Part shown: in pieces, positions 1 through 17,055 of the stretch
Position numbering within the stretch: position 1 is the first letter of the stretch
How the letters are laid out: the number at the start of each line of letters is the position of its first letter
Source: Desulfuromonadaceae bacterium
GTDB taxonomy: Bacteria > Desulfobacterota > Desulfuromonadia > Geobacterales > Pseudopelobacteraceae
Length of the DNA stretch: 64,000 nt
Assembly (NCBI GenBank): GCA_028687585.1
Contig: JAQTZV010000003.1
Coordinates: forward strand, 62,001-126,000
Reading direction: 5' to 3'
The notes under the pieces: generated by a model
Databases searched by the model: none
What the model saw: the letters and a program-made list of their open reading frames with translations, nothing else
Told to the model about the DNA's origin: nothing
Position numbers and translations under genes: made by a program

Positions 1-679
1 CCGAGCGGTCGCAGTAGCTGCAGGCATAGGGGCAGCCACGACTGGAGATGCAGCTCGTATTTGGCGTCTTCGGGTAATTAAAGATCGGCAGCATGTAGGA
101 TGCTGGAAATCCTGCCAGTTTCTCGTAGGCGGGAAACGGCAGATCGTCCAGCACGAGCCCGTTATCCCGGTAGCCGGTGAAATGTACCTCTGACCCTTTG
201 CGGTAGATGATTCCTTTAACCGCTGCCGGGTCGTCCAGGCCGGAGCGGGCAAGCTCCTCCATGGTTTCCTCACCTTCGCCGATCACGGCGAAATCCATGG
301 CAGGAAAGTTGGCAAAGAGCTGTTCCTTAAGTGCTGAAACGTGCGGACCACCGAAGACCGTCCGGATGCCGGGAACCGTCCGGCGGGCCACCTCAGCGAT
401 CCTGATGCCGTCAAGAAAGCTGGAGGTTGTGCAGCTTAACCCGATGAAAGCCGGTTTTTCCGCGAGCAGGTAGTCACGAATTGCCCGGTCTGAATCGGGC
501 CTTGCATAGCAGTCAACAATATCAACCGATCTGCCACGTTGCTCCATGTAGGCAGCTATGCTTGCAAGCCCTAATGGCGGCATGATGTTGGCGATGCGGG
601 AAATATCTCGCCCGGCCGCATCCGCCTTGTAGCCGAGCGGATGGACCAACAGGATTTTTTTATCGTTTAACATGTGCAT
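1..679 (-). CDS. B12-binding radical SAM protein (partial, N-terminal part)
   Basis: The gene enters from the right and runs off the left edge, so only about 226 N-terminal residues are visible. They form a cobalamin-binding-type Rossmann domain (start MHMLNDKKILLVHPLGYKAD, then GLSCTTSS and VFGGPHVS), followed by the radical SAM cluster motif CPYACSYC close to the edge. Family knowledge: such enzymes use a 4Fe-4S cluster and SAM, often with cobalamin, for methylation or C-C bond chemistry. The ATG at 679 overlaps the stop of the preceding gene (TAATG) and has AAGGA about nine bases upstream; a second in-frame ATG lies at 673. It is the last visible gene of the fatty-acid-like array, and the substrate is unknown. 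Confidence 0.85.
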   Translation of the reverse strand, partial: MHMLNDKKILLVHPLGYKADAAGRDISRIANIMPPLGLASIAAYMEQRGRSVDIVDCYARPDSDRAIRDYLLAEKPAFIGLSCTTSSFLDGIRIAEVARRTVPGIRTVFGGPHVSALKEQLFANFPAMDFAVIGEGEETMEELARSGLDDPAAVKGIIYRKGSEVHFTGYRDNGLVLDDLPFPAYEKLAGFPASYMLPIFNYPKTPNTSCISSRGCPYACSYCDRS

Positions 680-2028
680 TATCTATATTCCTTGGGAAAC
701 TTGATCAACGAATCCCAGAGCAGCCCACGGTAGCCAAACCGGTGCATAATCGAACGGCTTTCCTGAGCTTCGGACGGAGGAAAAATACGGTCGCGCCTCC
801 TCCTGAAGGCGGTCTGAATCATGTCATTCATCTTCTGCACATCAACGCCTGGTGACAGGTAATAAACCGGGTCACGCAGTGATGCGCCGTCAGCCATGAG
901 CCCGTCTCTGACGGCACGTGCAAGGAGGGGGGTCCCGGGGAGGATACGTATTCCGGAGAAGGCAAAGACAACGGTATGCTCCAACTGATCCAGATTTTTG
1001 AGCCCCTCGGCGATCGTCTCCATCGTTTCACCAGGCCCGCCAAACATGACAAAATGAGCGCATGGAAGTCGTTCGGCGATGCAGGCCCGGTTTGCCTCGA
1101 GAGCATCGGCAAAGGTAAACCCTTTGCCGAGCGAGCGTAGAGTTGTATCGCTTGCCGCGTCAGTGCCGAGTTCGACGGCATAGAGGCCTGACCGTTTCAT
1201 CAGTGCGATCTCCTGTCTTCTCACTCCTTCCGGTCGCATATAGCAGCACCAGCGCAGGGAGAGGTTTCGACGGATGATTTCCTCGACTACTTCGAGGTAG
1301 TGACCGTCGCTGTCGTTGAAAACCGAGTCCGTAAAGAAAAAACTATCCACTCCGTGCTTTGTATTGATCCGCTCCAGATCGTCAACTACCGTTTTCGGAT
1401 CGCGACAGCGATAGCGCGTCCCCTCAAGTGTGGGATAGCTGCAGTAGATGCAGCCGTGAGGGCAGCCGCGCTTGGTTTGCAGATTGATCATGCTGCTTTG
1501 TTCCAGGTAGAACGCGATCATACTCTCCGAATAAAGCGGCGATATCATCTCGACCCCAGAGAGAAGTCCGTTGCTGTACAGTATTCTGGGTGGCGATATT
1601 CCTTCAGAGAGATTGCTGATCAGCTCGCAGACCAGACGCTCCCCCTCACCAACTATTCCGTAGTCAGCGCCGGTGTAGGCCAAAAGTTCTTCCGGCATGA
1701 TTGAAAACGCAGGGCCGCCAACAATGACCGGTGCAGTCGATTGTTCCCGGATCACTACAATAAGGCGTCTGGTAATCTCCGGATAGCCGGTGACCGTCAG
1801 GGAGTCACAGTTGTCCAGATTTCTGATTGAAACGCAGACGTAGTCAGGCGCAAAGTCGGTAACCCGCTCTGCCAACAGCTCCTCCGACTCTCCTGACGCC
1901 AGAAAATCGAACTGTGCCACTTCGTGTCCGGCTCCTGCCAGCGCGGCCGCAATGACTGCGAGTCCCAACGGATAGACCGGGTACGGTTCCACCGTAATAT
2001 TTGAGGAAACCAGCAGAATCCGTTTCAT
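679..2028 (-). CDS. B12-binding radical SAM protein
   Basis: A complete 449-residue protein. An N-terminal B12-binding-like Rossmann domain (residues about 1-150, with YPLGLAVIAAAL and VIVGGPAFS) precedes a radical SAM TIM-barrel starting at the CPHGCIYC cluster motif near residue 190. Later segments such as GFTFADALEANRACI and VMFGGPGETMET fit the Elp3/BchE-like barrel. The start overlaps the end of the upstream radical SAM gene by four bases (ATGA), so the two are probably translated together. The known family catalyses methyl transfer or radical rearrangement on unactivated carbon. Placement at the end of a lipid/polyketide-type operon suggests it modifies that product; this is inference. 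Confidence 0.87.
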   Translation of the reverse strand: MKRILLVSSNITVEPYPVYPLGLAVIAAALAGAGHEVAQFDFLASGESEELLAERVTDFAPDYVCVSIRNLDNCDSLTVTGYPEITRRLIVVIREQSTAPVIVGGPAFSIMPEELLAYTGADYGIVGEGERLVCELISNLSEGISPPRILYSNGLLSGVEMISPLYSESMIAFYLEQSSMINLQTKRGCPHGCIYCSYPTLEGTRYRCRDPKTVVDDLERINTKHGVDSFFFTDSVFNDSDGHYLEVVEEIIRRNLSLRWCCYMRPEGVRRQEIALMKRSGLYAVELGTDAASDTTLRSLGKGFTFADALEANRACIAERLPCAHFVMFGGPGETMETIAEGLKNLDQLEHTVVFAFSGIRILPGTPLLARAVRDGLMADGASLRDPVYYLSPGVDVQKMNDMIQTAFRRRRDRIFPPSEAQESRSIMHRFGYRGLLWDSLIKFPKEYR

Positions 2029-3290
2029 GCCTTATTCAATCCCTTGACAAAAGAGCGCTTCCGGCGTGGATTATAGCGGTAGTAGGTACCATCCTCCATC
2101 TCCCTCTGAATCACTTTCTTGAAAAGATTCCCCATTTTGAGCTGGTGTCCGCCGTCCGCATAAAAGGTATCCCACGCGTAGTAGTAAAGCTCCTGGAGTT
2201 TTTCAGGGGTCATCTGCTTCGGTTGAAATAGTACCTTGTCCGCAGAGTAGTTTTTCCAGTCGCTGTTCAAGAGCCTCCCTTCGCTCTCAAGCTGGGTGCG
2301 ACAGGGTGAATGGGGAAACGGAGTCAAGATAGTGAATTCTGCCACATCCAGTTCGACCTCCAGAAGGAAATCAACCAGTCGCTTGATGTCGTCTTCGCTC
2401 TGCTCGTCGGTCCCGAGCAGAATAGTTCCTTCTACGCCGATGCCATGATCCTTCAGACGCTTGATACGGTTACGAATCAGATCAGAGGTGTCGAAGACAG
2501 CCTGGTACACGTACCAGGCTCCCGCATCAGCAGCCAGTTTCAGGATTTTGTCGTCATCCATGATCGGGTGGGAGACCCATTTTTTTTTCAGTGGTTCCAT
2601 AGCGGTGAAAAGGTCGATTAGCCATTGGCGATCCTGGGCCAGCGAGTTATCTACGATGAACATGCGGTTGTTACGGATCGCTTCCATCTCTTCGATCACT
2701 TTATCGATCGGGCGTGGCCGGAAGCTCTTGCCGCCCAGAAATCCGGTGCAGCAGGGGAAACAGTCAAATTTGCACCCGCGCGAAGCATGTACTAGATCGA
2801 GCATCTGGACGTCGCGATAATTGTAGAGCTCCCGGTTCAGGATTTCCCGCCGGGCGGTGCCGATAAGAGAGGCATCCGGGGGGTTGTCCATGTAGTTGTA
2901 GACTTTTTTCATTTCGCCGGACCTGAAGTCGTCCAGTACAGCGGCAAAACGCCCCTCTGCTTCGCCAAGAAAGACAGCGTCAGCATGTTGCGCGACCTCC
3001 TCCGCATGCAGCATGGTGGCGATACCACCAAAGATAACAGCCACGCCGCGCTTACGGAATTCGGCAGCGATTTCAAAACCGCGCGGGAGCTGGCAGGAGA
3101 GCATGACAGAGATGCCGACCAGATCACAGGGTGCTTCGAAGTCGATCCTTTCGAGGTTTTCATCGATGAATTCCAGCTTCACCTCCGGCGGAACACAGGC
3201 GGCGAAGACTACCGGGCCGTGGGGTGGGAGGTGAAATTCCGTCTGCCGGTCAAGTTTTGGCCAACGGGGGTAGATCAGGATCATATTCAT
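2025..3290 (-). CDS. Radical SAM protein with B12-binding-like N-terminus
   Basis: A complete 421-residue protein. The N-terminus has a B12-binding-type fold (LVGISVMLSCQLPRGFEIA, FGGIATMLHAEE). The radical SAM motif CKFDCFPC sits near residue 175, and the C-terminal half contains ILLGTDEQSEDDIKRLVDF and FTILTPFPHSPC, a pattern seen in HpnP/HpnJ-like lipid-modifying radical SAM proteins. Its start has GGAGA about ten bases upstream. Its stop overlaps the next radical SAM gene. Three such enzymes in a row at the end of a fatty-acid-like operon point to radical tailoring of an acyl chain, but no substrate can be read from sequence. Confidence 0.86.
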   Translation of the reverse strand: MNMILIYPRWPKLDRQTEFHLPPHGPVVFAACVPPEVKLEFIDENLERIDFEAPCDLVGISVMLSCQLPRGFEIAAEFRKRGVAVIFGGIATMLHAEEVAQHADAVFLGEAEGRFAAVLDDFRSGEMKKVYNYMDNPPDASLIGTARREILNRELYNYRDVQMLDLVHASRGCKFDCFPCCTGFLGGKSFRPRPIDKVIEEMEAIRNNRMFIVDNSLAQDRQWLIDLFTAMEPLKKKWVSHPIMDDDKILKLAADAGAWYVYQAVFDTSDLIRNRIKRLKDHGIGVEGTILLGTDEQSEDDIKRLVDFLLEVELDVAEFTILTPFPHSPCRTQLESEGRLLNSDWKNYSADKVLFQPKQMTPEKLQELYYYAWDTFYADGGHQLKMGNLFKKVIQREMEDGTYYRYNPRRKRSFVKGLNKA

Positions 3291-3395
3291 ATATTGGTTG
3301 TCTCCTTTTTAGTCGCAGTTCAATGGGATGACTCGGTGTACATGCATTTTTTTGGTAATTTTTACCACGTGCTGCGAGATAAAAACGGTAGTGAC

Positions 3396-4196: not shown

Positions 4197-4289
4197 AAGT
4201 CATTCCTCCCTGTCAAAAATTCGAATCAACACCCTGTCGGCGAAACAGTACCTGAAAACTGCAAAACTACACTTCCTCTGAAGTGGCAT

Positions 4290-5006
4290 TTAACGGATTA
4301 TCCCAGTCATGGCTCTCTGAACCAGCTCAAAAAGGCTGTTGGTGGCACTGCCGTTATGCAAAAGAGTGCCGTCACCGACTAACGATACGATTCCGTAATT
4401 GTTTGACGCCGCTGGAGCTGTAGCGGCGAGAACCAAGAAGACCGCCCCCGGTGTTAACGATACAGAATCCGCAAATGCCTCCGGCACGGCCAGGTCGCAG
4501 ATCCCGGCCAGCATCGTGTCTGCTTCCCCCTGTTCCAGATCTTCCAGCGCCATCCGGATAGCATCGAGGTTATCTCCACCGGTCTCGTTGATGGCGAACG
4601 ATGAGCCGGTCAGTCCGAACTGAATGGCGGCATCGCCCAGAAAACAGTTGGCGAGCGTGTATGCGAACAGATTCGGACTGGCAAGCCCGCCGCCGTCAAG
4701 GAGCACGGTTGTGTGGTATTCGAGGTCGGTGGCGAGGCAGCCGAGGCGGGTTGAAGCGACCACGCCGATAGGGCGTTTATCAGCCCACTTTTCCAGTCCG
4801 GCATCACGCAGGGCAAAGGTAACAGCAGCGAGGCCGAGCTTCGTGTACTCCGACATACGACCGAAACGCTGATTCGGTTCCGGGAAAACATCCTTGCGCG
4901 TCAGCGGCGGAAGCGGCAGATCCGGCATGGTCCATTCGCCCCCCTGACTTCCCCAGCCGAACCCTGCGCCGGTAACCCAGCCGATGCCGCAGATATATGC
5001 GTCCAT
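4290..5006 (-). CDS. Ketosynthase-like partner protein lacking the catalytic cysteine
   Basis: A 238-residue protein, little more than half a normal ketosynthase. It shows the thiolase-fold N-terminal half (YTKLGLAAVTFALRDAGL, IGVVASTRLGCLATDLEY, NLFAYTLANCFLGDAAIQFG). At the nucleophile position, where ketosynthases read N-x-A-C-A, it reads INETGGDN with no cysteine. The C-terminal catalytic histidines are also absent. Start and stop chain directly with the upstream full ketosynthase (shared base at 5006). Family knowledge: type II polyketide and aryl polyene systems pair an active KS with an inactive chain-length factor. A CLF-like role here is inference; degeneration is the alternative. 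Confidence 0.75.
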   Translation of the reverse strand: MDAYICGIGWVTGAGFGWGSQGGEWTMPDLPLPPLTRKDVFPEPNQRFGRMSEYTKLGLAAVTFALRDAGLEKWADKRPIGVVASTRLGCLATDLEYHTTVLLDGGGLASPNLFAYTLANCFLGDAAIQFGLTGSSFAINETGGDNLDAIRMALEDLEQGEADTMLAGICDLAVPEAFADSVSLTPGAVFLVLAATAPAASNNYGIVSLVGDGTLLHNGSATNSLFELVQRAMTGIIR

Positions 5007-6136
5007 TACCCCTCCTCCCGGCGCAGTATCAGCGCTGCATTAACACCGCCGAAACCGGAATTGGTACTCAACAGATACCTGCCGTCAATCGGCTCTGCGG
5101 AACAGCTCAAAAATCCCTCGCCAGCTTCTTCTGGCTCCAGCAAACCTACCGTGGGGGGGAGTTGACCGGCCTCAAGGCATTTCAAGCCAAGAGCGACTTC
5201 GATCCCGCCTGCGGCACCCAGGGTGTGGCCGATGGCTCCTTTGATCGAGTGCATCGGGATGCTGCGCTCTCCGAAAAGCGTGCGGAAGGCGATAAGCTCC
5301 ATCAGGTCGTTATACACCGTTGCGGTGCCGTGCGCGCTGATCGCAGCTATCTCTGCAGGAGCAATCGCTGCACGCTTCAGCGCCTGACGCACAGACTGAA
5401 TCAGGCCGCAGCCGTCGCGGGCGGGAGCGGTGATATGGGTGGCGTCGTTGGCGGATCCCCACCCGGAAACAACGCCAAGTACCGGCCATCCTTCCCGGAT
5501 CGCCTGCTCGCGGCTCATGAGGAGCAGCGCTGCCCCCCCTTCACCCAGAATCAGGCCGTCACGGTTGCGGTCGAAGGGGCGACAGGCAGTCCTTGACAGC
5601 GCCTGGAGTGCCGAGAATCCGGAAAACACAAATTCACTCACCAGATCCATACAGACCACAACAACCGACTCGCTTCTTCCCGCAGCGATCAGGGAGGCAG
5701 CGCGAGCCACGGCAATGGTTGAAGAGGCACACGCCGCGTTAATGTTGATTCCGGAAGCGGTCATGCCGAGTCTGCCAGCGATATGTTGCAGCAACGGCGC
5801 CATCGGGACTTCGGCAGGATCGCCCGGAAGCCCCATTTGAAGCCGCTCCATACCATCGATGCATCCCTTGGTGCTTGCCGTAATCAAGGTTGTGCCCGCA
5901 GGAACCGGGACGAAACCGTCAAAAAGCTGCTCTAGCAGCGGATAGAGCCTTGACTGGCTGCTCTTTGACTCCAGCCCTTCGATCCAGGAAGCGTTTCCGG
6001 TCAGGTAGCGGTCGGTCGCAAAGCGGGTAAGCGGCCGTATCGCACTTTCTCCTGCCATGACGCCCCGCCAGAGGCTGTCCAGGTCAGGGCCGAGGCCGGT
6101 CACGGTATGAGCGGCAGAAATACAGACCTCTCTCAT
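5006..6136 (-). CDS. Beta-ketoacyl-ACP synthase (active KS)
   Basis: A 376-residue FabF/FabB-type condensing enzyme. The nucleophile motif is NAACASSTIAVARA, and both catalytic histidines are visible (SAHGTATVYNDLME and IKGAIGHTLGAAGG). It would elongate ACP-bound acyl chains with malonyl-ACP in the cytoplasm. The start overlaps the thioesterase gene by four bases and the stop abuts the inactive KS-like partner, a layout typical of KS/CLF pairs. Slightly short for a FabF (usually about 410 residues). Its exact chain specificity is not readable. Confidence 0.9.
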   Translation of the reverse strand: MREVCISAAHTVTGLGPDLDSLWRGVMAGESAIRPLTRFATDRYLTGNASWIEGLESKSSQSRLYPLLEQLFDGFVPVPAGTTLITASTKGCIDGMERLQMGLPGDPAEVPMAPLLQHIAGRLGMTASGININAACASSTIAVARAASLIAAGRSESVVVVCMDLVSEFVFSGFSALQALSRTACRPFDRNRDGLILGEGGAALLLMSREQAIREGWPVLGVVSGWGSANDATHITAPARDGCGLIQSVRQALKRAAIAPAEIAAISAHGTATVYNDLMELIAFRTLFGERSIPMHSIKGAIGHTLGAAGGIEVALGLKCLEAGQLPPTVGLLEPEEAGEGFLSCSAEPIDGRYLLSTNSGFGGVNAALILRREEG

Positions 6137-6594
6137 CGGATGATCCCCTTTTCCCAGCGATCGAGAAAGCTGCTCACAAATGGCGGCGGAATGAGCATGA
6201 TATTCATGTCGGTATCGAGCAGCATCTGCACCGTGTATCCGGTCGTGGTAATCTCTTCTGCCCTGTTTCTGATAATGAACTCGAAGTTGAGGCGTGCCGC
6301 CGCACTCCAGTGCAGTATCCCCTCGATGCTGAAATATTCTTGAAAGCGCAGCGGTCGAACGTAGTCGATGTGCATCTGCTTGATAGGACAGAGGATGCCT
6401 TGCCCATAGAAGTCGAGGTAACCCAGACCGTATTTTTCACCGAATGCCACCCTGGCATCCTCGAAAAAGCTTGGGTAGCGACCATGCCACACTATATTGA
6501 GCGGGTCTACCTCTTCGAAGCGGACCTGACGCTCAACAGTTATTCTGAGGGGGGAGGGCGCGTTCTCCTGCCGTGAAAAATAGGCGCGGCTCAT
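6133..6594 (-). CDS. Acyl-ACP/acyl-CoA thioesterase, 4HBT hotdog family
   Basis: A 153-residue single hotdog domain. The YbgC-like active-site region reads VRFEEVDPLNIVWHGRYPSFFEDAR, shown here as two parts: VRFEEVDPLNIV and WHGRYPSFFEDAR; the aspartate is the expected catalytic residue. Such enzymes hydrolyse thioesters and could release the finished acyl chain from the carrier protein. It overlaps both neighbours by four bases (dehydratase upstream, ketosynthase downstream), so it belongs to the same operon. Aryl polyene clusters carry a comparable thioesterase. Confidence 0.86.
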   Translation of the reverse strand: MSRAYFSRQENAPSPLRITVERQVRFEEVDPLNIVWHGRYPSFFEDARVAFGEKYGLGYLDFYGQGILCPIKQMHIDYVRPLRFQEYFSIEGILHWSAAARLNFEFIIRNRAEEITTTGYTVQMLLDTDMNIMLIPPPFVSSFLDRWEKGIIR

Positions 6595-6992
6595 GGCACC
6601 TCTCCTGTAGAGGAAAGTTCGATCAACAGAGTCGCGGTGATGGTTTCTCCCACGGTCAACTCAGCGTCATAGAGGAGCTTCCCTTTAACGGACCGCTGTC
6701 GGCAGCGTACCAGGATCTCTTGATTCGGCAGTACCGGATTGAGAAATTTAGCATCTTCGACGGCTATCAGGTGTTGCCGGCATCCCGTATGTTCGCTGAC
6801 CAACGAGACCACGGTCAATATTTCCACGATGGCCGGGAGTATCGGATGACCCGGAAAATGCCCGGCGAATCCGGTAAAAGTATCTCCGAAACAGTAGCGC
6901 CCCTCCAGCGTCCCGCCGGCGTCTGTCGCTGCGCCGCCACGCTTTGCAGCGGCTATTCCCAATAAAATTTTATTCATCGATTTTGTCCACAC
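6591..6992 (-). CDS. FabA/FabZ-like hotdog dehydratase
   Basis: A 133-residue protein with the central hotdog signature FAGHFPGHPILPAIVEIL: histidine in GHFPGHP and a glutamate in PAIVEI match the FabZ-type catalytic pair. It probably dehydrates 3-hydroxyacyl-ACP to the enoyl form during chain assembly. The start lies 23 bases inside the upstream lipoprotein gene and the stop overlaps the thioesterase, so expression is probably coupled. A second, more distant hotdog dehydratase lies at 10657-11106. No enoyl reductase gene is visible in the array, which favours retention of double bonds; that last point is inference. Confidence 0.82.
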   Translation of the reverse strand: MWTKSMNKILLGIAAAKRGGAATDAGGTLEGRYCFGDTFTGFAGHFPGHPILPAIVEILTVVSLVSEHTGCRQHLIAVEDAKFLNPVLPNQEILVRCRQRSVKGKLLYDAELTVGETITATLLIELSSTGEVP

Positions 6993-7659: not shown

Positions 7660-10031
7660 TCCATATCCTTACCACAGAGAGCCGGGATTACCAGAAGCGC
7701 TGCAGGAATCCCGGTGCCGATCCCGAGCAGTACCGTTATTCCGATAGAGTGCATGGATGGATGTCGCGCCAAAGCCAGGGCGCCAAGCCCCGCAAGCGTT
7801 GTAAGCCCTGAAACAAGAACGGCTCGATTTGTCGTAGAGTCAGAACCTTCAGTTAATCTGCAAACCATAAATATCCCGTAATCAACGCACAACCCGATGA
7901 TAAGAATGGTTGCCGCGATATTGAAAATATTGAACTCGATACCACACAGTCCCATGATGCCGAGCATGCAGAGCAATCCAGTTACAACCGGAACCAGCGC
8001 AAGCATAACACGCGATGGTGAGCGGAAGACAACAATAAGGAGAGCGAGCACCAGGGCCGAGGTGAGCGTAAGATATCGGGTAAAGTCGTGGATGATGGCG
8101 CGCCCGACGTTGTCGCCGAAGCGGCTCTGGGAAACGAGGCGAACTCCCGGCAATGATTTGAGATCATCGGAGAGTGCCGCCACCACCTGTGGCGTGTCAG
8201 GCACCATTGTCAGTACTCGTACCATGTCTGGTGAGCGGATTATCAGCGAGTCAACGAGTTCCCCCATGCCCGCCTCCCGGAGGCTTTCCACGGTCGCTGC
8301 CGGTGGCGAGGTGGTGAGCGTCGCAAGAAACGGAGCAAAAGCTTCTGTGGAGAAACCGTACGTTTCTCCTGACTTCGTCAAATCTTTCTCCAGTTGCGCT
8401 GCCCGACCGTTCTGCCAGAAGGAGAGCCAGCGCGCCCTGTTTGCGTGTTGCAGGGCGTTGCTCGGCATAAGCGGCGCGAGGCTCACCAGATCACCGGCAG
8501 GAATACGTCCGGAGATCAACGCAAAGAGCTTGTCATTTAGTGCAAGGGCACTTTCCAGATCAGTTCCTTCGGCAAAGAGCAGTGCTTTGCCGCGCATATT
8601 TCCCCAGGTTTTGATCAGATCTTCCTCAGCCAGACGCAGTTCCGGAGTGACCATACTGACCGCTCCCAGCTCTCCGTTAAAACGGATGTTGGTCGACTGC
8701 CAGGAACAGAGTGCAAGAACGGCGAGCCAGACACCGATCACCACCCGGCGCGGCAGTCGCCATGCGCCGCCAAGACCCTTGAGTGACAGCTTCACCTCAG
8801 GCAGCGGTTTTATGAGATGCGGCAGCACGATGAGTGAAATAAGAAGCGCCGCTACGATCCCGACCATGCTGTAAACGGCAAGCTGACGCTGTCCCGGGAG
8901 GCTTGACAACAGCATGATGCCAAAGGAGATGAGTGTCGCCGCAGCGCCGAATATCACCGGCCTTGATACTTCGGCGGTGATGACGGCTGGATCTTTTCCA
9001 CCCTGTCGGCAGGAAAAATAGATCAGCATGGCATATTCATCAACCATGCCAAGCAGCACTCCGCCGAAACCGAGGGTGACGGCAAATACGTTGACATCGT
9101 AAAGTGCAATGACACCGGTGGCAATCACCAGGATTGAAGTGGGAACCAGAAACACAAAAACGGCACTCAAACTTCTCAAAAAAACCAGATAGATGGCGAA
9201 CACTGCCACGACGCTGAGAGTCAGGACTACGTAAAGATCCCGCTTGATGGTGTCAGCATTGACCAGCGTATAGCGATGCCCGGAGACAACCGTTGCGGTC
9301 ATTCCAGCAGGAACCGAGGCGGTAATCGCTGTGCTGATCCGCTCCAGAAGGTCTCGTGAACCCCCGGAATCTGTCATGGAGACAGCCGAGTCTACAACAA
9401 GCAGGGCGCTCGTGCCGTCAGCCGCCACGAAATGGTTCTGCACAAGGCGCATATTCGGAACCATATTCAAAAAACGCATCTTCTCCAGTGCAAGTGAAGA
9501 GAAGGAGAGCGGGTCAGTTTGAACGTTACCTTTAAGGGCCCACCCCTCAGGTGAAAGGAGCTGCTCATAACTGTTACGGAGGCGGCTTCGTACCTCGTCC
9601 GGTGAGCTGCCGGCGGCAAGCCGCTCCAGATCCTTTTCTGTCGTAAGGTTTGGGAGAGATGCCCCGAGCCAGCTAAAAAATCCGCCTGAGATGTTTGCCG
9701 GGCCGGTCATTACGTTTGCGATCCCTGCGGCTCTTAGCCCCTCTGCCAGGCGGTCGGTAACCACAATGAGTGCAGCAGAATCGTTTGGATTTCCCCCCTT
9801 CAGGGTAATTACGAGTTTCCTGGTGAAGGGGGCCAGCTGCAGCAGACGGAAATCCTGGGCAACGGAAGAACTGTCGTCCGGGAGCATCGCAACGATGTCT
9901 TCCTGAATATGCAACCGTGAGGATGCGAGAAAGCTCAAGACAACAATCAGTACCGTCACAGAGAAGAGAACCGTGCGCCGTACGGAGAAAAAATTGTACA
10001 GCTTTTCGAACAGCGTAAAGGCCGGTACCAT
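7656..10031 (-). CDS. MMPL/RND-family lipid exporter
   Basis: A 791-residue inner-membrane protein with the two-fold RND layout: one N-terminal helix, a large periplasmic loop (about residues 35-250), a block of helices, a second loop (about 455-625) and a final block. Acidic residues expected for proton coupling are seen in LLGMVDEYAMLIYF and GLCVDYGIFMVC. Family members export lipids, hopanoids or aryl polyenes. It lies between the LolA-like gene (3-base gap) and the DUF3261-like lipoprotein (4-base overlap). Export of the locally made acyl product is the natural reading, though the cargo is unknown. Confidence 0.9.
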   Translation of the reverse strand: MVPAFTLFEKLYNFFSVRRTVLFSVTVLIVVLSFLASSRLHIQEDIVAMLPDDSSSVAQDFRLLQLAPFTRKLVITLKGGNPNDSAALIVVTDRLAEGLRAAGIANVMTGPANISGGFFSWLGASLPNLTTEKDLERLAAGSSPDEVRSRLRNSYEQLLSPEGWALKGNVQTDPLSFSSLALEKMRFLNMVPNMRLVQNHFVAADGTSALLVVDSAVSMTDSGGSRDLLERISTAITASVPAGMTATVVSGHRYTLVNADTIKRDLYVVLTLSVVAVFAIYLVFLRSLSAVFVFLVPTSILVIATGVIALYDVNVFAVTLGFGGVLLGMVDEYAMLIYFSCRQGGKDPAVITAEVSRPVIFGAAATLISFGIMLLSSLPGQRQLAVYSMVGIVAALLISLIVLPHLIKPLPEVKLSLKGLGGAWRLPRRVVIGVWLAVLALCSWQSTNIRFNGELGAVSMVTPELRLAEEDLIKTWGNMRGKALLFAEGTDLESALALNDKLFALISGRIPAGDLVSLAPLMPSNALQHANRARWLSFWQNGRAAQLEKDLTKSGETYGFSTEAFAPFLATLTTSPPAATVESLREAGMGELVDSLIIRSPDMVRVLTMVPDTPQVVAALSDDLKSLPGVRLVSQSRFGDNVGRAIIHDFTRYLTLTSALVLALLIVVFRSPSRVMLALVPVVTGLLCMLGIMGLCGIEFNIFNIAATILIIGLCVDYGIFMVCRLTEGSDSTTNRAVLVSGLTTLAGLGALALARHPSMHSIGITVLLGIGTGIPAALLVIPALCGKDME

Positions 10032-10034
10032 AAC

Positions 10035-10664
10035 TTAGAAAAGGTCTGCTTGCAGCGGCTTGTTCACCACCGTATTGACAAATTTGATCCGGGTGAAGTC
10101 TCCATCTTTTTCATGCAGTTCGACGCTGCGTACGTACCTGCCATCGGTACTGAATGTTATCAAAAGGTGATTTAGGAACCCTGCCGTTGCAGCGGATCGT
10201 GGTTCCAGACGAAGCGCCACCGGCGACTCGCCGAGGACAGTTATCCGGTACTCCTTCTTGAGCCAGGCAAAATCCGCTTTCCCCCAGGCAAAGAGCTGCT
10301 CGGAGACAAGCTTCATGATCGGTTCCTGACTGATCTGAAAACTCTCGCTCCGCCCGGTGCGTTCATGCCAGCGCCGCCCTTTATCTCCCCTCAGAACGAA
10401 TCCGGAAGCGACCGGAGCGGTTAGTTCCCAGCGCAGCAGGTCCGGTTTGCTGAAGTAGAAGCGCCCTTTGGAATTCATGACGGTTTTAAAAATTGCCAGA
10501 TGTTTTTCCTGAACAAAATCACTTGATAACGTCTTGACACTGCCTGCAGTTCGCTCCAGGGCGTTGAAGAGTGCTGCGGATTCGGTCGAAGTCGTGGTTT
10601 TCGCTGCGGTTACGGTGCCACCGCTGAAGAACAGAAAGCCGATCAGCGCAATTATCCTAATCAT
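10035..10664 (-). CDS. LolA-like outer-membrane lipoprotein carrier
   Basis: A 209-residue periplasmic protein. The chosen ATG at 10664 (MIRIIALIG) has GGAGG upstream and leads into a signal peptide ending near VTAAK; an upstream in-frame ATG at 10679 is less well placed. The mature sequence has the LolA-type pattern (SDFVQEKHLAIFKTVMNSKG, FYFSKPDLLRWEL, PVALRLEPRS). LolA folds chaperone lipid moieties across the periplasm. Here it sits beside an MMPL exporter and a lipoprotein, so it is more likely a cluster-specific carrier than the housekeeping LolA. Confidence 0.85.
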   Translation of the reverse strand: MIRIIALIGFLFFSGGTVTAAKTTTSTESAALFNALERTAGSVKTLSSDFVQEKHLAIFKTVMNSKGRFYFSKPDLLRWELTAPVASGFVLRGDKGRRWHERTGRSESFQISQEPIMKLVSEQLFAWGKADFAWLKKEYRITVLGESPVALRLEPRSAATAGFLNHLLITFSTDGRYVRSVELHEKDGDFTRIKFVNTVVNKPLQADLF

Positions 10665-11106
10665 GCTGTTTTCCTCCATCGACTATCCAGAGCTTGATTG
10701 AGCCGCTTGCGATGGTCTTGCCGGTAGAAATAACTTCTCCCTCTGCCACAGCAAACCCCTCGAAGCTGCCGACAGTCCTAATGTGTATCTGAAGTTTTTC
10801 ACCGACAGAGGCACGGCCGGTGATGCGCAATTTTCTGATACCAACCAGGAACCCCTTCTTGATTTCATTGCCGTGCAACATGTCATCATAACCCTTTATG
10901 ACGGCGTAACTTTGCGCCAGAAGTTCTACTAACGTTACCTCATCCAGAGTGCCGTCCAAATTGGCCAGGATGCTGTTTACGGAAAGTGTTGTCTCGATAA
11001 CACCGGCTGCATCGGCGCACGAGATTAGCGTGTCCAACAGCTGCATAGGCGGCCGGTGCGGAATGAGGTTTGCTGCCGGCATTGGTAATGTAATGTTGTT
11101 CTTCAT
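10657..11106 (-). CDS. Hotdog 3-hydroxyacyl-ACP dehydratase (ApeI/ApeP-like)
   Basis: A 149-residue hotdog protein. The N-terminal motif IPHRPPMQLLDTL and the later EVTLVELLAQSYAVIKGYDD match the dehydratases found in aryl polyene clusters (histidine in PHRPPM, glutamate in VELLAQ). It is distinct from the shorter GHFPGHP-type dehydratase at 6591-6992. The gene overlaps the signal-peptide region of the LolA-like gene. It begins eight bases after the stop of a possible 47-codon ORF. Two dissimilar dehydratases in one cluster are consistent with building a polyene. Confidence 0.83.
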   Translation of the reverse strand: MKNNITLPMPAANLIPHRPPMQLLDTLISCADAAGVIETTLSVNSILANLDGTLDEVTLVELLAQSYAVIKGYDDMLHGNEIKKGFLVGIRKLRITGRASVGEKLQIHIRTVGSFEGFAVAEGEVISTGKTIASGSIKLWIVDGGKQHD

Positions 11107-11114
11107 TGTGTCGC

Positions 11115-11258
11115 TTACCGCCTGTATACCGGAATGTTATCTGTAACCATAAACTTTGCATTACTAACGGATTTGAGTGTTTTGAGCACCGCTACGGTTC
11201 CCATTCTGGCAACGTCCTGATTTGAGATGTAGCAGAATATGGAGAATTGCCAGTTCAT
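11115..11258 (-). CDS. Possible 47-residue coupled small ORF
   Basis: This fills the gap between the acyltransferase and the dehydratase. It begins MNWQFSIFCYISNQD and ends DNIPVYRR. Its ATG overlaps the acyltransferase stop as ATGA (11258-11255), and its TAA lies eight bases before the dehydratase ATG, so it fits the operon's coupling pattern exactly. I recognise no domain or signal peptide. It could be a real small protein or the remnant of a larger gene lost at this point. Confidence is limited because the ORF is short. Confidence 0.4.
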   Translation of the reverse strand: MNWQFSIFCYISNQDVARMGTVAVLKTLKSVSNAKFMVTDNIPVYRR

Positions 11259-12049
11259 GGCAGTCTTTGCATCTCTTCAAGTTCCAGTGACATGCGTTTT
11301 TGTACCTCCCGGCGCAACTGGTCAAGCCCTTTCCTCCCGAGATATTCAGAAGGATCCACCGGATCTAAGGCTCTAAGCCGCACCCGTGCAGGATGCAAAA
11401 AGGAGTGACCAGGTGGGAGCATGGTGTCGGTACCGGTGATACAGAGAGGGACAATCGGCACGCCTGTTTCCTGTGCAAGACGAAACGCGCCGGAGTAAAA
11501 TGGTTGCAGTTTTCCGGTTCTGCTTCGGTGTCCCTCGGGGAAAAAGAGGACGGTCCCCTGTTTGGCAAAAGTTGCCGTACAGGTTCGCTTTACCTCGTCC
11601 CAGTTGCCAGTTTCTACGTCGAGATAGCTGGCAAGCCTCATGAACAGGGTGTACCAGTACATTTTAAAGGGCCATGCCCCGACGGCAAAGATACCGTCAT
11701 GAAAAGGAAGAGCAGCCAAAAAATAACTGTCAAAAAAAGAGAGGTGATTGACCACCAAAATGCATGGGCGCTTAATTTCAGCCAACCTTTCCTTCTGAAA
11801 ACCTACGAAAGGGGATACAATAATAATCAGTCCGTAACCGTGGATACTGATTAGGTGTCGCATGACTCGACCAACATCCCAGCCGGTCACGACTTTCCAG
11901 ATAACGATTAAAAAAGGGGATACCAGGATTCCTGTAACGATCCAAAAGGCCATCAGAGGGTAGAACATGAGGTTAAACGCTAACGCTTGTATTCTTCGGG
12001 GGATGCTCATTTTGCCCCGATGCCAATTACTATCCGAATTCGTTGTCAC
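11255..12049 (-). CDS. PlsC-type lysophospholipid/lipid acyltransferase
   Basis: A 264-residue inner-membrane protein. Two N-terminal hydrophobic segments (ALAFNLMFYPLMAFWIVTG and VSPFLIVIWKVV) precede the acyltransferase motifs NHLSFFD (the HX4D catalytic pair) and FFPEGHRSRTG (the EGxxS-like substrate motif). Such enzymes move an acyl chain from ACP or CoA onto a glycerophosphate or similar hydroxyl. It is preceded immediately by the ACP gene, suggesting the ACP-bound product is transferred to a lipid or glycan anchor. A LPLAT of this type is also found in aryl polyene clusters. The acceptor is unknown. Confidence 0.86.
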   Translation of the reverse strand: MTTNSDSNWHRGKMSIPRRIQALAFNLMFYPLMAFWIVTGILVSPFLIVIWKVVTGWDVGRVMRHLISIHGYGLIIIVSPFVGFQKERLAEIKRPCILVVNHLSFFDSYFLAALPFHDGIFAVGAWPFKMYWYTLFMRLASYLDVETGNWDEVKRTCTATFAKQGTVLFFPEGHRSRTGKLQPFYSGAFRLAQETGVPIVPLCITGTDTMLPPGHSFLHPARVRLRALDPVDPSEYLGRKGLDQLRREVQKRMSLELEEMQRLP

Positions 12050-12053
12050 GTAA

Positions 12054-12314
12054 TTATGCGCTCTCCAACTGACGTTTTTTATTGATTACGAAGCTGTGGA
12101 TGTCGCCCAGGGTGCGAATGTTCCGTATAGCTTCCTCCTCGCGGATTTTCATGCCAAAAGCTGTTTCGAGCACTATAACAAGGTCTACGACATCCAGGCT
12201 GTCCAGTCCCATATCCTCATAAAGCGTTGTCTCGGGAGTCATCACCCCAAGATCAAGCTCAAATTCTTCAGCAAGCGAGCTGTTGATCTTCTCGATGATC
12301 TCTTGATCAGTCAT
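12054..12314 (-). CDS. Acyl carrier protein
   Basis: An 86-residue acidic protein with the phosphopantetheine attachment motif DMGLDSLDVVDLV, the serine being the modified residue. AAGGAG lies about nine bases before the ATG, and the ATG overlaps the upstream ketosynthase stop (ATGA at 12314-12311). It carries the growing chain for the ketosynthases, ketoreductase and dehydratases of this operon. It is the only carrier protein visible in the array, whereas aryl polyene clusters usually have two. Confidence 0.93.
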   Translation of the reverse strand: MTDQEIIEKINSSLAEEFELDLGVMTPETTLYEDMGLDSLDVVDLVIVLETAFGMKIREEEAIRNIRTLGDIHSFVINKKRQLESA

Positions 12315-13543
12315 TGCGGGTATCTCCTTAAGATAATTGATGAGTTTATGCCACCTAAGGCAAAGTTGTTTTTTACCACCGTCGATACCGGGCGCCGGGA
12401 GACTCCATCAACGTGCTGTACATTCGCGCAGCGCGGATCAACATTATCAAGATTAAGAGTCGGGATCAAGACGCCCTGTTGGAGCATCTCGATGCAGGCC
12501 GCAAGTTCCAGTGTGCCGCTGGCCGCCATGGCGTGACCCAAGTGGCCTTTCAGGCTACTGGTTGGTGTGCGGGAGCCAAAGACGCTCGAAATTGCCTGGC
12601 ACTCGGCGATGTCGCCCTGTTCTGTTGCGGTGGCATGGGCATTAATATAATCAACATTGTCCGGCTCGATTTCAGCGTCAGTAAGTGCCAAGCGCATGCA
12701 CTCTGCTATGCACTCTGCATCAGGGTTGGCAATGCTTCCCGGATCAGAGTTGGTGGCAAAGCCGACTATCTCGGCAAGGATGGTGGCCCCGCGCTGCTGT
12801 GCCGACTCCAGAGACTCCAAAAGCAGTATGCCGCTTCCCTCGCCGCAGACAATGCCGTCGCGATCCCGGTCAAAAGGGCGCGGAGTGCTGCTTGGGGAGT
12901 CGTTAAACGCCATCGATGCTGCGTTTATAATGTCAAAAGTCCCTGAGGTGAGTGGATGAAATTCGTCCGCCCCCCCGCAAAGCATAAAGTCCTGTTTTCC
13001 CATGCCGATCATTTCTGCTGCGTAGCCGACTGCATGACAGCTGGTGGAGCAGGCTGCAGCGGGTGCCAGAATCCTTCCGGTGACACCAAGTGCCTGAGCC
13101 ACATTAGATGCACAGCTGTGGTTCATGATGTGGAAGAATATCGTTGATTTCATTCGCTCCAGGCTGTTGTCGAGACTAAAATCCCGAAAAAATTCCTGCA
13201 TGGTTTGCGGGCTTCCAACTGTTGAGCCGAGAGAAACGCCGAGGCGGCCACTGTGAAGCTGCTCCTTAGTAAGTCCTCCCATGTAGGCTGCATCCTTGCT
13301 GGCAAGGGTCGCAAAAACCGACATGCTCGACATGGACCGGCGAAATTTCCTTGGGATCTCCAACGGATCGATCCCGGTAGCAAGTGCAGCAACCCGGGTT
13401 CTCATCCCCGTGATCTCAGCCAACGCAGGGATCTCAACGACGCCACTTTTACCCGCAAGAAGTGCGGCCATCAGGTTTTCAATACCTCTGCCAAAAGGGG
13501 ATACAACGCCTATTCCCGTTATGACGACTCTTCTCAGCAACAT
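12311..13543 (-). CDS. Beta-ketoacyl-ACP synthase II-type (FabF-like)
   Basis: A 410-residue, full-length condensing enzyme. The nucleophile region is APAAACSTSCHAVGYAAEM, and the histidines are in INAHATATEQGD and LKGHLGHAMAASG. DRDGIVCGEGSGILLLE is also typical of the family. It works on ACP-bound intermediates in the cytoplasm and is cotranslated with the ACP that follows it. It and the neighbouring ketosynthase at 13639 share the same length but differ in sequence, so they probably act at different elongation steps; that division is inference. Confidence 0.93.
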   Translation of the reverse strand: MLLRRVVITGIGVVSPFGRGIENLMAALLAGKSGVVEIPALAEITGMRTRVAALATGIDPLEIPRKFRRSMSSMSVFATLASKDAAYMGGLTKEQLHSGRLGVSLGSTVGSPQTMQEFFRDFSLDNSLERMKSTIFFHIMNHSCASNVAQALGVTGRILAPAAACSTSCHAVGYAAEMIGMGKQDFMLCGGADEFHPLTSGTFDIINAASMAFNDSPSSTPRPFDRDRDGIVCGEGSGILLLESLESAQQRGATILAEIVGFATNSDPGSIANPDAECIAECMRLALTDAEIEPDNVDYINAHATATEQGDIAECQAISSVFGSRTPTSSLKGHLGHAMAASGTLELAACIEMLQQGVLIPTLNLDNVDPRCANVQHVDGVSRRPVSTVVKNNFALGGINSSIILRRYPQ

Positions 13544-13638
13544 GCTTCGTGTTCCTTTCCCATAGCTATAAAACTCAGTTTAGAAACGGTATCATACAAA
13601 AGGAAATGCATGAAAAGCAAGCTATTTAGCAGCCCCCT

Positions 13639-14871
13639 TTATTCAGCAAAACGTAGTACGAGGCAGGAGTTGGTTCCGCCAAAACCTGCAGAGTTGCACA
13701 GGACGTGTTCGGGGGAACGGTCAATGCACTTCTCTATTATATTCAGCCCCGCCGTGGCCTCATCTGGTTCTGAAAAGTTTGCATTCGGCGCAATGAAGCC
13801 TTGTTGAGCCATGATGGTTGAATAGACTACCTGCGATGCTCCGGACATCCAGAGTTCATGTCCGGTCATCGATTTGATCGAAGATACCGGTGGGGTCCGT
13901 GGCCCGAATACGGCTGATATGTTACCTGCCTCTGCAGCGTCTCCCGCAGGGGTCGACGTTGCGTGAGCACAGATGTAATTGATATCACACTCCTTAATCC
14001 CGGCAAGAGCTATGGCCTTGCGCATGGCCCGCTGTAGTCCCTCCTGACTCGGAACTGAAATGTGGTTGCCATCTGATGAGAAAGCATAACCTCTTACTTC
14101 ACCGAGAATGGCAGCGCCGCGGGCTTTGGCCAAATCGTAGCGCTCAAGTACAAGAGCGGCTGCACCACCGCTCGGAATCAGTCCGTCTCGTCCGGCATCA
14201 AATGGTCGTGATGCTTTGCCGGGATCGTCAAGGCGTGTTGAGAAAGCGCCCAGAGCGTCAAAGCTGCACATAGATTGCCAGTTAATTTCCTGTGCGCCGC
14301 CGCAGATGACCCGCTCCTGACGCCCAAAGGCAATCAGATCCGCTGCTTGGCCGACGGCGTGGCCGCCACTGGAACAGGCAGAACTGATAGTCCAACAGGC
14401 GCCGCCTGTTTTGAAAAGAGTATTCAGATTCATTGTAATACAGGATGTCATGGAGCGAAAGATGTGGCCACTACCAATAAGTTTGGTCTCGCCGCGCTCT
14501 TTGAGCAGGTCAACCTGCTCAATCGCCGCTATACTGCTGGAATCACAACCGAAAATCAGACCGCTCTCTGGGCTTTGCACATCATCCTCTCCGAGTCCCG
14601 ACATTGTGAGCGCGTCAAATGCAGCCGCATGGGCCTGGACAGCAAAGTCCGGCATGGTTTTGCACTGCTTCTTTGACAGTAAGGCGCGTGGATCAAAACC
14701 AGAAATAGCTCCGGTCAGTGGGCTTCTGAAGCCGAGTGTGCGTCGCTCCTCATCGAGTATTATCCCCGAGTGACCGAGCCGTAATGCCTTCCCGACGGCC
14801 TCGACGGTATTGCCGAGGCACGAAACAATGCCTATGCCGGTAATCGCAACTCTATGCACAAATCCTCGCAT
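13639..14871 (-). CDS. Beta-ketoacyl-ACP synthase (FabF-like)
   Basis: A 410-residue condensing enzyme starting with RVAITGIGIVSCLGN. Catalytic cysteine is in ISSACSSGGHAVGQAA, histidines in ICAHATSTPAGD and KSMTGHELWMSGA. It follows fabG by about 47 bases and precedes the second ketosynthase by about 95 bases on the same strand. In the second histidine motif the usual glycine-rich H-x-x-G-A-A-G is altered to HELWMSGA, so substrate range may differ from housekeeping FabF. Confidence 0.92.
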   Translation of the reverse strand: MRGFVHRVAITGIGIVSCLGNTVEAVGKALRLGHSGIILDEERRTLGFRSPLTGAISGFDPRALLSKKQCKTMPDFAVQAHAAAFDALTMSGLGEDDVQSPESGLIFGCDSSSIAAIEQVDLLKERGETKLIGSGHIFRSMTSCITMNLNTLFKTGGACWTISSACSSGGHAVGQAADLIAFGRQERVICGGAQEINWQSMCSFDALGAFSTRLDDPGKASRPFDAGRDGLIPSGGAAALVLERYDLAKARGAAILGEVRGYAFSSDGNHISVPSQEGLQRAMRKAIALAGIKECDINYICAHATSTPAGDAAEAGNISAVFGPRTPPVSSIKSMTGHELWMSGASQVVYSTIMAQQGFIAPNANFSEPDEATAGLNIIEKCIDRSPEHVLCNSAGFGGTNSCLVLRFAE

Positions 14872-14918
14872 GATGAAATAGTTTGACTGTGGTGGTGGGC
14901 TTCTTCAACCGCCGGTTA

Positions 14919-15647
14919 CTACATGTAGGCCCCGCCGTTAACTGATAAGATCTGCCCGGTTATGTACGACGCCTTATCCGAACAGAGGAATGCAACGGCT
15001 TCAGCGACCTCGGCGGGTTTGCCGATTCGCCCCATTGGGATCATTGGCAGTATTCTCTCAATAGGGAGGCCGTCGATCATCTCTGTCTCGATAAATCCTG
15101 GTGACACTGTGTTTACCAGCACGTTGCGTTTGGAGGTTTCTGCGGCCAGTGCCTTGGTGGCGCCAATCAACCCCGCCTTTGCTGCAGAGTAGTTTACCTG
15201 GCCCGGCATGCCGCTCTGCCCTGAGGTAGAAGCAATATGGATGATTCTGCCCGCTCTTTTTTTGAGCATTCCGACCAGCAGTAGTTTGGTGACATAAAAA
15301 AAGCCGTCCAGATGAACAGAGAGCACATCCTTCCATTCACTCTCCCCCATCCAGACCATCAGGGTATCTTTGGCAAATCCCGCGTTGTTTACCAATACGG
15401 AGGGGTATTCCTGCTCAAGAAGTGGAGTAAGTACCTCCTTTACTGCCGTGGGGTCGGCAACGTCAAAGCACATCAGCCGACAGGATCTTCCAAGCTCTTC
15501 AATCTGCTTACCGACCGCCGCTGCAGCAGTATGGTCAGAACGGTAATTGAGCCAAATATCGTAGCCGTCACGTGCCAGAACCAGAGCAATAGCGGCCCCG
15601 ATCCCTTTGCTCGCTCCGGTAACCAACGCTGTTTTTTGTTCGTGCAT
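14919..15647 (-). CDS. 3-oxoacyl-ACP reductase (FabG-like SDR)
   Basis: A 242-residue short-chain dehydrogenase. The cofactor motif is [13 protein letters not shown], the structural motif NNAGFAKD, the catalytic set is the serine in [16 protein letters not shown] for tyrosine and lysine, and the C-terminus SVNGGAYM fits FabG. It reduces 3-oxoacyl-ACP with NADPH. It is the first gene of the array, preceded by about 180 bases of non-coding DNA that holds a hemW terminator and a second hairpin with a U-run. Confidence 0.92.
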
Positions 15648-16967: not shown

Positions 16968-17055
16968 GGTGATCTCCTGATTTTTTTGAGTGCCGAGAGT
17001 CCAAAGATATGATAGTGTTACGCCCTTGGTTGGTAAATATAAAAAAGGGGATTTT

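What the first reader, a model, noticed from the sequence alone, without database searches (positions are those of the whole stretch)
1..15647. Acyl/polyene biosynthesis-and-export array coupled to three radical SAM enzymes
A single minus-strand array carries KR, three KS plus a KS-like partner, ACP, two dissimilar dehydratases, thioesterase, acyltransferase, LolA-like carrier, MMPL exporter and DUF3261-like lipoprotein, then three radical SAM proteins, at least two with B12-type N-termini. The core matches aryl polyene clusters, but no AMP ligase, ammonia-lyase or glycosyltransferase for an aryl starter is seen, and no enoyl reductase. Radical SAM plus FabF sets have been proposed for ladderane-type lipids in anammox bacteria and in Desulfotalea, from memory. 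A modified polyene or otherwise radical-tailored lipid exported to the outer membrane is the inference.
Basis: partly seen in the sequence, partly recalled or inferred. Interest (0 to 1): 0.9.

Follow-up and report, generated by a model that had tools for sequence, protein, structure and literature searches.

The report
Anaerobic pigment-lipid cluster, starter gene lost
A Geobacter-like, probably anaerobic bacterium carries a large gene set related to those that build aryl-polyene (flexirubin-type) pigments, with B12/radical SAM enzymes added and only a remnant left of the gene that once supplied the aromatic starting block; what it makes is not yet known.

Summary
The array is real and is the right half of a ~33.5-kb cluster. 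Extended left, it has the complete third B12-radical SAM gene, a second ACP, a second KS/KS-like pair, acyltransferases, a CrtI-like flavoenzyme, an ABC exporter and a divergent arm with GT2-DUF2062, a fourth radical SAM and a StlD/DarB ring-forming ketosynthase. Radical SAM genes are conserved with the KS array (33 of 36 relatives of at least 20 kb). One radical SAM is NCBIfam's "ladderane" protein TIGR04072, but the machine is aryl-polyene/flexirubin-type: 16 of 34 proteins are reciprocal best hits in two Bacteroidota flexirubin-type clusters. Closest relatives carry an ammonia-lyase, some also a FlxY-like ligase: aryl-starter genes. The window keeps a 41-codon ammonia-lyase fossil at that exact place; its genome has no other copy. 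Remaining genes look constrained, so a changed starter is likelier than a dead cluster. Against ladderanes: the related anammox cluster is in 4 of 19 putative anammox genomes and on another branch. TIGR04072 resembles TsrM (TM 0.84; lower-axial Arg in 31 of 31, but Glu273 absent), so C-methylation is the likeliest chemistry. Product untested.

The parts
14919..15647 (-). KR (FabG/FlxB-like), first gene of the array
   Evidence: FlxB 300.7 bits (cut-off 340); reciprocal best hit to flexirubin-type clusters
13639..14871 (-). KS1, Cys-His-His intact
   Evidence: 49-51% identity, reciprocal best hit to KSa of Persicobacter/Aureispira clusters
12311..13543 (-). KS2, Cys-His-His intact
   Evidence: 63% identical to KS2 of genome G325
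12054..12314 (-). ACP1
   Evidence: DSL motif
11255..12049 (-). PlsC-type acyltransferase
   Evidence: PF01553
11142..11264 (-). Fossil of an ammonia-lyase gene: 41 codons aligned to lyase residues 414-461 (7 residues missing), at the slot where relatives have the intact gene
   Evidence: 27 of 48 aligned positions identical, E 1e-6; only match to the lyase in the whole genome, E 2.3e-5; relatives' gene order
10657..11106 (-). Dehydratase DH1 (ApeP/FabZ-like)
   Evidence: PF22817 27.5 bits (cut-off 27)
10035..10679 (-). LolA-like lipid carrier
   Evidence: PF03548 71 bits; LolA2_flexi 113 bits (cut-off 125)
7656..10031 (-). MMPL/RND exporter
   Evidence: PF03176
6970..7659 (-). Lipoprotein, weakly DUF3261-like
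   Evidence: E 0.012, below cut-off
6591..6992 (-). Dehydratase DH2 (ApeI-like)
   Evidence: PF22818 E 2.5e-4, below cut-off
6133..6594 (-). 4HBT thioesterase
   Evidence: PF13279
5006..6136 (-). KS3, Cys-His-His intact
4290..5006 (-). KS-like partner A, N-terminal half only, no Cys
   Evidence: PF00109
3396..4196 (-). Exported 266-aa protein, window-specific insertion
   Evidence: 0 of 80 relatives
2025..3290 (-). Radical SAM protein of 421 aa, CxxxCxxC at 173; weak B12-binding match
   Evidence: in 67 of 80 relatives
679..2028 (-). B12-radical SAM protein TIGR04072, TsrM-like fold
   Evidence: 684.6 bits (cut-off 360); TsrM TM 0.84 by query length; R69
1..679 (-). 5' part of the third B12-radical SAM gene (484 aa in all, L007:17225-18679)
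   Evidence: Left of the window, window position = L007 position minus 18000: LpxL-type acyltransferase, ACP2, KS4, KS-like B, PagL-like, 147-aa protein, BtrH/DUF4872, ABC ATPase, 271-aa MT-like (by reading only), CrtI-like, ABC-2 permease; divergent deacetylase-MT, GT2-DUF2062, radical SAM, StlD/DarB, OMP

Best explanation
A type II polyketide machine of the aryl-polyene/flexirubin kind, adapted to anaerobic life. KS/KS-like pairs (KS3 with A, KS4 with B), two further KSs, KR, two dehydratases and ACPs extend a starter into a conjugated polyene without enoyl reduction. Acyltransferases and the GT2-DUF2062 attach it to a carrier; LolA, MMPL and the lipoprotein take it to the outer membrane. 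StlD/DarB condenses a second chain into a cyclohexanedione/resorcinol-type ring. B12-radical SAM enzymes tailor it; TIGR04072 most likely transfers a methyl group to an sp2 carbon as TsrM does. The ancestor's starter was an aromatic acid made by an ammonia-lyase and activated by a FlxY-like ligase. In this genome both are gone from the cluster (one left as a fossil) while the other genes are kept, so the machine now probably uses another starter. Shown: gene content, order, homology, fossil, constraint, predicted fold. Inferred: every reaction, the substrate and the product.
For: 16 of 34 cluster proteins are reciprocal best hits (E 1e-6 or better) in both Persicobacter pPP6 and Aureispira pAUEa clusters; four Persicobacter proteins pass the curated flexirubin cut-offs (FlxA 776/700, FlxB 373/340, LolA2 176/125, FlxY 566/520). 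Single-contig genome G325 has the order KR-KS1-(CrtI)-KS2-ACP-acyltransferase-ligase-lyase-DH1-LolA-MMPL-lipoprotein-DH2-TE-KS3-KS-like, with ligase and lyase where the window has the fossil. Lyase present in 4 of 4 close relatives that hold the stretch (L043, L044, L045, L056). StlD/DarB over cut-off in 16 of 24 window-type genomes, 4 of 24 of the second type, 0 of 32 others; nearest solved structure StlD, E 3e-126. dN/dS 0.03-0.20 in all gene pairs tested. TsrM the top fold match; the residue aligned with its Arg69 is invariant in 31 of 31.
Against: The window's own genome has no ammonia-lyase beyond the fossil and no close FlxY homologue (best 31% identity, 144 bits). KR and LolA fall just below the flexirubin cut-offs. 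The lyase is a minority trait: 15 of 80 loci, 3 of 12 loci where acyltransferase and DH1 are within 3 kb, and 1 of 24 window-type genomes at high identity. The two comparator clusters lack all four radical SAM genes and StlD/DarB. TsrM's Glu273 is a Val/Ile/Phe here, so TsrM's non-radical chemistry need not hold. One relative-rate test shows mild excess change on the window branch (260 against 202, chi2 7.3, outgroup L044); three do not (212/183, 178/149, 106/112). No DarA aromatase was recognised among the scanned cluster proteins; the genome was not searched for it.
Confidence: 0.7

Rival explanations
1. Ladderane or ladderane-precursor lipid cluster, as the TIGR04072 name and Rattray 2009 suggest: radical SAM enzymes close a polyene into cyclobutane rings.
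For: TIGR04072 equivalog 684.6 bits against 360. The anammox clusters of G486 and G566 hold rSAM, KS, LpxL, LolA, MMPL, CrtI, GT and ligase homologues. PMC2649909 (results and discussion, first parts read) reports such clusters in Desulfotalea, Geobacter and Pelobacter.
Against: The anammox cluster copy is in 4 of 19 HzsA-bearing planctomycete genomes and absent from 7 of the 11 that hold a separate relative. The window's branch (47 rows, 100/98) excludes every anammox copy in the tree (4 cluster, 7 separate). No ladderanes were found in Desulfotalea (abstract). E. coli expression of K. stuttgartiensis candidate genes gave none (PMC4790861, abstract and first part of results), though most proteins were insoluble, so that test is weak.
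Confidence: 0.06
2. Anaerobic polyunsaturated fatty acid pathway feeding C31:9-type hydrocarbons through Ole enzymes.
For: Desulfotalea made C31:8/C31:9 with no known PUFA pathway (PMC2649909); G. bemidjiensis makes C31:9 (PMC4882568 passages).
Against: NF006754 (taken as OleC from memory) is over cut-off in 2 of 24 window-type genomes against 13 of 56 others, and not in the window's genome. Ammonia-lyase, FlxY-like ligase and StlD/DarB have no place in that route. PfaA was not searched.
Confidence: 0.06
3. In this strain the cluster is decaying: after loss of the starter genes it makes nothing.
For: Ammonia-lyase reduced to a fossil, ligase gone; a window-specific insertion sits inside the array; mild excess change in one of four relative-rate tests.
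Against: The other reading frames are open over their length; dN/dS 0.03-0.20 with dS about 0.6-1.5, though these pairwise values average both branches; most other carriers also lack the lyase.
Confidence: 0.15

Closest known systems
Flexirubin (Flx) and related aryl-polyene (Ape) clusters, e.g. Persicobacter psychrovividus pPP6 (L194), Aureispira anguillae pAUEa (L195/L196)
   Same: 16 of 34 proteins reciprocal best hits in both, incl. KR, KS, KS-like chain-length factor, ACPs, DHs, TE, LpxL, LolA, MMPL, CrtI-like, deacetylase, GT2-DUF2062; lyase and ligase in relatives
   Different: Radical SAM genes, StlD/DarB, BtrH, ABC pair and PagL are not in those two clusters; aryl-starter genes lost in the window's genome
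TIGR04072 'ladderane' clusters of anammox bacteria and Desulfotalea (Rattray 2009)
   Same: TIGR04072 and a 421-aa-like radical SAM beside KS, LpxL, LolA, MMPL, GT and a ligase in G486 and G566
   Different: Another branch of TIGR04072; no hit was assigned to the 484-aa radical SAM there; StlD/DarB in 16 of 24 window-type against 4 of 24 second-type genomes
TsrM, cobalamin-dependent tryptophan C2-methyltransferase
   Same: Top fold match, TM 0.84 by query length, 0.72 by target length; Arg69 equivalent invariant
   Different: Glu273, which blocks the cluster iron in TsrM (PMC8992657 passages), is Val/Ile/Phe here
StlD/DarB ketosynthases
   Same: NF005293 563 bits against 450; StlD structure E 3e-126
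   Different: Below the DarB model's own cut-off (456 against 550); no DarA recognised among the scanned cluster proteins

Membership tests
Flexirubin (Flx) cluster | FlxA tyrosine ammonia-lyase | tested here: not met
   Fossil only in the window; no other copy in the genome. Relative's lyase (L056) 483 bits against 700
Flexirubin (Flx) cluster | FlxY ligase | tested here: not met
   Own genome best 31% identity, 144 bits; relative's ligase (L081) 444 bits against 520
Flexirubin (Flx) cluster | FlxB reductase and LolA2 over curated cut-offs | tested here: not met
   300.7 against 340; 113.2 against 125
Aryl-polyene/flexirubin-type assembly and export set | KS with Cys-less KS-like partner, KR, two DHs, ACPs, TE, LpxL/PlsC acyltransferases, GT2-DUF2062, LolA, MMPL in one cluster | tested here: met
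Aryl-polyene/flexirubin-type assembly and export set | Product is a conjugated aryl polyene | not testable with these tools
   needs chemistry
TIGR04072 rSAM_ladder_B12 | Curated score cut-off | tested here: met
   684.6 against 360
Ladderane pathway | Cluster present in all ladderane makers (anammox) | tested here: not met
   4 of 19 HzsA-bearing genomes; the 19 were picked by eye from 66 with an HzsA-domain match, and that each is anammox rests on HzsA alone
Ladderane pathway | Product has cyclobutane rings | not testable with these tools
   needs chemistry
StlD/DarB ketosynthase | NF005293 cut-off | tested here: met
   563.1 against 450
TsrM-type methyltransferase | Arg in the lower axial site of cobalamin | tested here: met
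   by alignment; role from PMC13331322 passages
TsrM-type methyltransferase | Glu273 on the unique cluster iron | tested here: not met
   V 24, I 6, F 1 of 31
Ole/C31:9 hydrocarbon route | OleC-type NF006754 in the genome | tested here: not met
   2 of 24 window-type genomes

The most novel reading that the evidence does not exclude
Anaerobes of several phyla make an undescribed class of outer-membrane lipids: aryl- or acyl-capped polyenes joined to a cyclohexanedione/resorcinol ring and C-methylated by TsrM-like B12 enzymes. The so-called ladderane clusters outside anammox are this class, and the TIGR04072 proteins of anammox bacteria are methyltransferases of the same stock rather than ladder-forming cyclases.
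Probability: 0.3. Interest if true: 0.82.

Novelty: new variant of a known kind. Interest (0 to 1): 0.62.

Why it matters
Surveys report 'ladderane' clusters in many non-anammox phyla with no link to ladderane lipids made (PMC9902471 passages). If these are aryl-polyene/resorcinol-type clusters with B12-radical SAM tailoring, the label is misleading, pigments of this kind extend to anaerobes, and the search for the ladderane enzymes should move away from the anammox cluster that shares this plan (by content it looks like kuste3335-3352 of K. stuttgartiensis, an inference). The lyase fossil also gives a natural case of a polyketide machine apparently kept after losing its starter genes.

Tried and rejected
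Ladderane reading: weakened by distribution and tree. C31:9/Ole reading: weakened. Ordinary aryl-polyene cluster with starter genes just left: not found in the 38 kb fetched. A second marker in the anammox genomes agreed with the first. E. coli CFT073 as an aryl-polyene yardstick: the stretch fetched missed that locus and was not pursued. Plasmid hits to StlD/DarB: the three looked at were not pigment clusters; MMPL hits gave the useful comparators. Lyase substrate: the NQDVVSMG stretch looks TAL/PAL-like (recalled), but the best NCBIfam scores are histidine ammonia-lyase models, all below cut-off, so the substrate is open. PfaA and DarA were not searched over genomes. The 271-aa MT-like and 147-aa proteins have no significant Pfam match. 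Published equivalence of the two cluster kinds was not found (2 papers; passages of one read; 5 papers; passages of three read; none); the library holds CC-licensed PMC papers only.
Full report
OBSERVATION. The window is G000:C50:62001-126000 of a 5.47-Mb, 60-contig genome; its nearest relatives by TIGR04072 are Geobacter and Geobacteraceae MAGs at 71-85% identity. Fetching the stretch to the left shows that the array goes on for 17.9 kb. Minus strand: a 484-aa B12-radical SAM protein, LpxL-type acyltransferase, ACP2, KS4, KS-like B, PagL-like barrel, 147-aa protein, BtrH/DUF4872 protein, ABC ATPase, MT-like protein (by reading only), CrtI-like flavoenzyme, ABC-2 permease. Opposite strand: deacetylase-methyltransferase, GT2-DUF2062, a 431-aa radical SAM protein (HpnR-like, far below that model's cut-off), a StlD/DarB ketosynthase and a barrel protein. 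In all about 33.5 kb.

CONSERVATION. TIGR04072 over 395 Desulfobacterota genomes gave 84 over the cut-off, in two score groups: 24 genomes at 482-698 bits (window type) and 60 at 360-438 bits (second type). The window's own genus-mate G025 has only the second type. Of the 36 loci of at least 20 kb, the 421-aa radical SAM is in 33, LpxL in 32, KS4 and ACP2 in 31, MMPL, KS-like A and GT2-DUF2062 in 30, KS3 and LolA in 28, the 484-aa radical SAM in 16; one (L113) held only 3 of the 34 genes. Among shorter loci, L096 (17.6 kb) showed TIGR04072 alone and L119 (17.6 kb) three genes. Loci reach only 10 kb to each side, so absences are upper bounds.

WHAT IT IS. Two Bacteroidota plasmid clusters found through the MMPL protein serve as yardstick; four of ten Persicobacter proteins scanned pass curated flexirubin cut-offs (Aureispira was not scanned). 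Of 34 cluster proteins, 16 are reciprocal best hits at E 1e-6 or better in both (KR, KS1, ACP1, DH1, LolA, MMPL, DH2, TE, KS3, LpxL, ACP2, KS4, KS-like B, CrtI, deacetylase-MT, GT2-DUF2062). The PlsC acyltransferase matches a domain fused to MMPL there; KS2 hits the same KS as KS1; KS-like A hits the chain-length factor only weakly; the rest, all four radical SAM genes and StlD/DarB among them, have no significant counterpart. StlD/DarB is over its cut-off in 16 of 24 window-type genomes (one more has a fragment), 4 of 24 second-type and 0 of 32 others, and lies on the same contig within 20 kb of TIGR04072 in 10 of the 16. The 80 genomes were all 24 of the first group and my choice of 24 of 60 and 32 of the remaining 311.

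THE STARTER. In an analysis of 42 loci (40 of the 80 named ones plus G325 and G195), unmatched genes included a FlxY-like ligase family (15) and an ammonia-lyase family (11); by direct search the lyase is in 15 of 80 and the ligase in 20 of 80 named loci. The lyase has the GSVGASGDL motif of the MIO cofactor in the 10 of 11 relatives whose sequence covers it (MIO role recalled). It sits before DH1, and directly behind the ligase in G325, where the whole half-cluster is present in the window's order but unlinked to the radical SAM half. In the window the interval between acyltransferase and DH1 is 148 bp and holds a remnant of 41 codons, aligned over 48 lyase residues (27 identical, E 1e-6), the only match in the genome. 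The four close relatives whose record holds the interval (L043, L044, L045, L056) have the intact gene; L040-L042 do not hold it. The lyase is rare in the whole-genome sample (G325 alone of 24 at 81%; G307 at 38%), so many carriers work without it. The other window genes compared show dN/dS 0.03-0.20; one of four relative-rate tests shows a mild excess on the window branch.

CHEMISTRY OF TIGR04072. A model from 31 sequences (pLDDT 92.8) matches TsrM best (TM 0.84 by query length; then MgmA, AprD4, OxsB, CysS, TokK). Profile alignment puts the window's R69 on TsrM Arg69; it is R in 31 of 31 and 14 of 15 sequences of the two alignments, and in 19 of 19 second-type and anammox copies looked at. 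In TsrM this Arg occupies the lower face of cobalamin (PMC13331322 and PMC8992657, passages). TsrM's Glu273, which keeps AdoMet off the cluster iron, is replaced by Val, Ile or Phe. So methyl transfer is the likeliest reaction, radical or not being open. The 484-aa protein is nearer AprD4 and TokK by sequence; the 421-aa protein has no close solved relative.

LADDERANES. Nineteen planctomycete genomes were picked by eye, from 66 of 343 with an HzsA-domain match, for a full-length match in a frame of HzsA size. The anammox cluster copy of TIGR04072, at 411-440 bits, is in 4 of 19 (the surroundings of two, G486 and G566, were read); a separate relative at 305-340 bits is in 11 of 19, seven of which lack the cluster copy; 8 have neither. 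In the three separate copies whose surroundings were read (G520, G486, G566) no other cluster gene was matched. A second marker from the cluster agrees: 83-100% identity in the same 4, 47-48% in 3, at most 40% in 12. In a tree of 67 rows the window type is one clade (47 rows, 100/98), the anammox cluster copies group with second-type Desulfobacterota copies, and the separate copies form their own clade; one long second-type row (L039) falls beside the window clade. That all anammox bacteria make ladderanes is general knowledge; that a genome of this list is anammox rests on HzsA alone.

VERDICT. New variant of a known kind: an aryl-polyene/flexirubin-type machine with B12-radical SAM and StlD/DarB genes, its starter genes lost in this genome. 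It is not filed as a flexirubin cluster, since FlxA and FlxY are absent here, nor as a ladderane cluster.

Noticed in passing
window 3396-4196 (-): Exported 266-aa protein inserted between the KS-like gene and the radical SAM genes; no match in 80 of 80 relatives and no significant Pfam family.
   Followed up: partly
G000:C40:22963-31931 (L002, L004, L009): A second place in the same genome with two radical SAM homologues of the 421-aa protein (37% and 26% identity); neighbours listed as ORFs only.
   Followed up: no
L041 and G325 (L161-L162, L197-L198): The cluster comes apart into two halves: in L041 other genes lie beside the radical SAM/KS4 half, and in G325 that half is at 1.0 Mb while the KR-to-KS-like half is at 3.57 Mb in intact order.
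   Followed up: yes
G520, G615, G646 and others (L136-L142): A separate TIGR04072 relative is in 11 of 19 HzsA-bearing genomes, outside any matched cluster gene in the 3 read; a more widespread anammox candidate than the cluster copy.
   Followed up: partly
L078, L089, L091, L094, L097, L102, L107, L112, L118: Nitrospirota, Omnitrophota and some Desulfobacterota versions add a conserved ~446-aa protein and an FAD oxidoreductase, mostly followed by the 431-aa-type radical SAM gene; function not studied.
   Followed up: no
window 15831-17126 (-): HemW/HemN-like radical SAM gene (by reading the ORF) directly right of the cluster, taken as the border.
   Followed up: no
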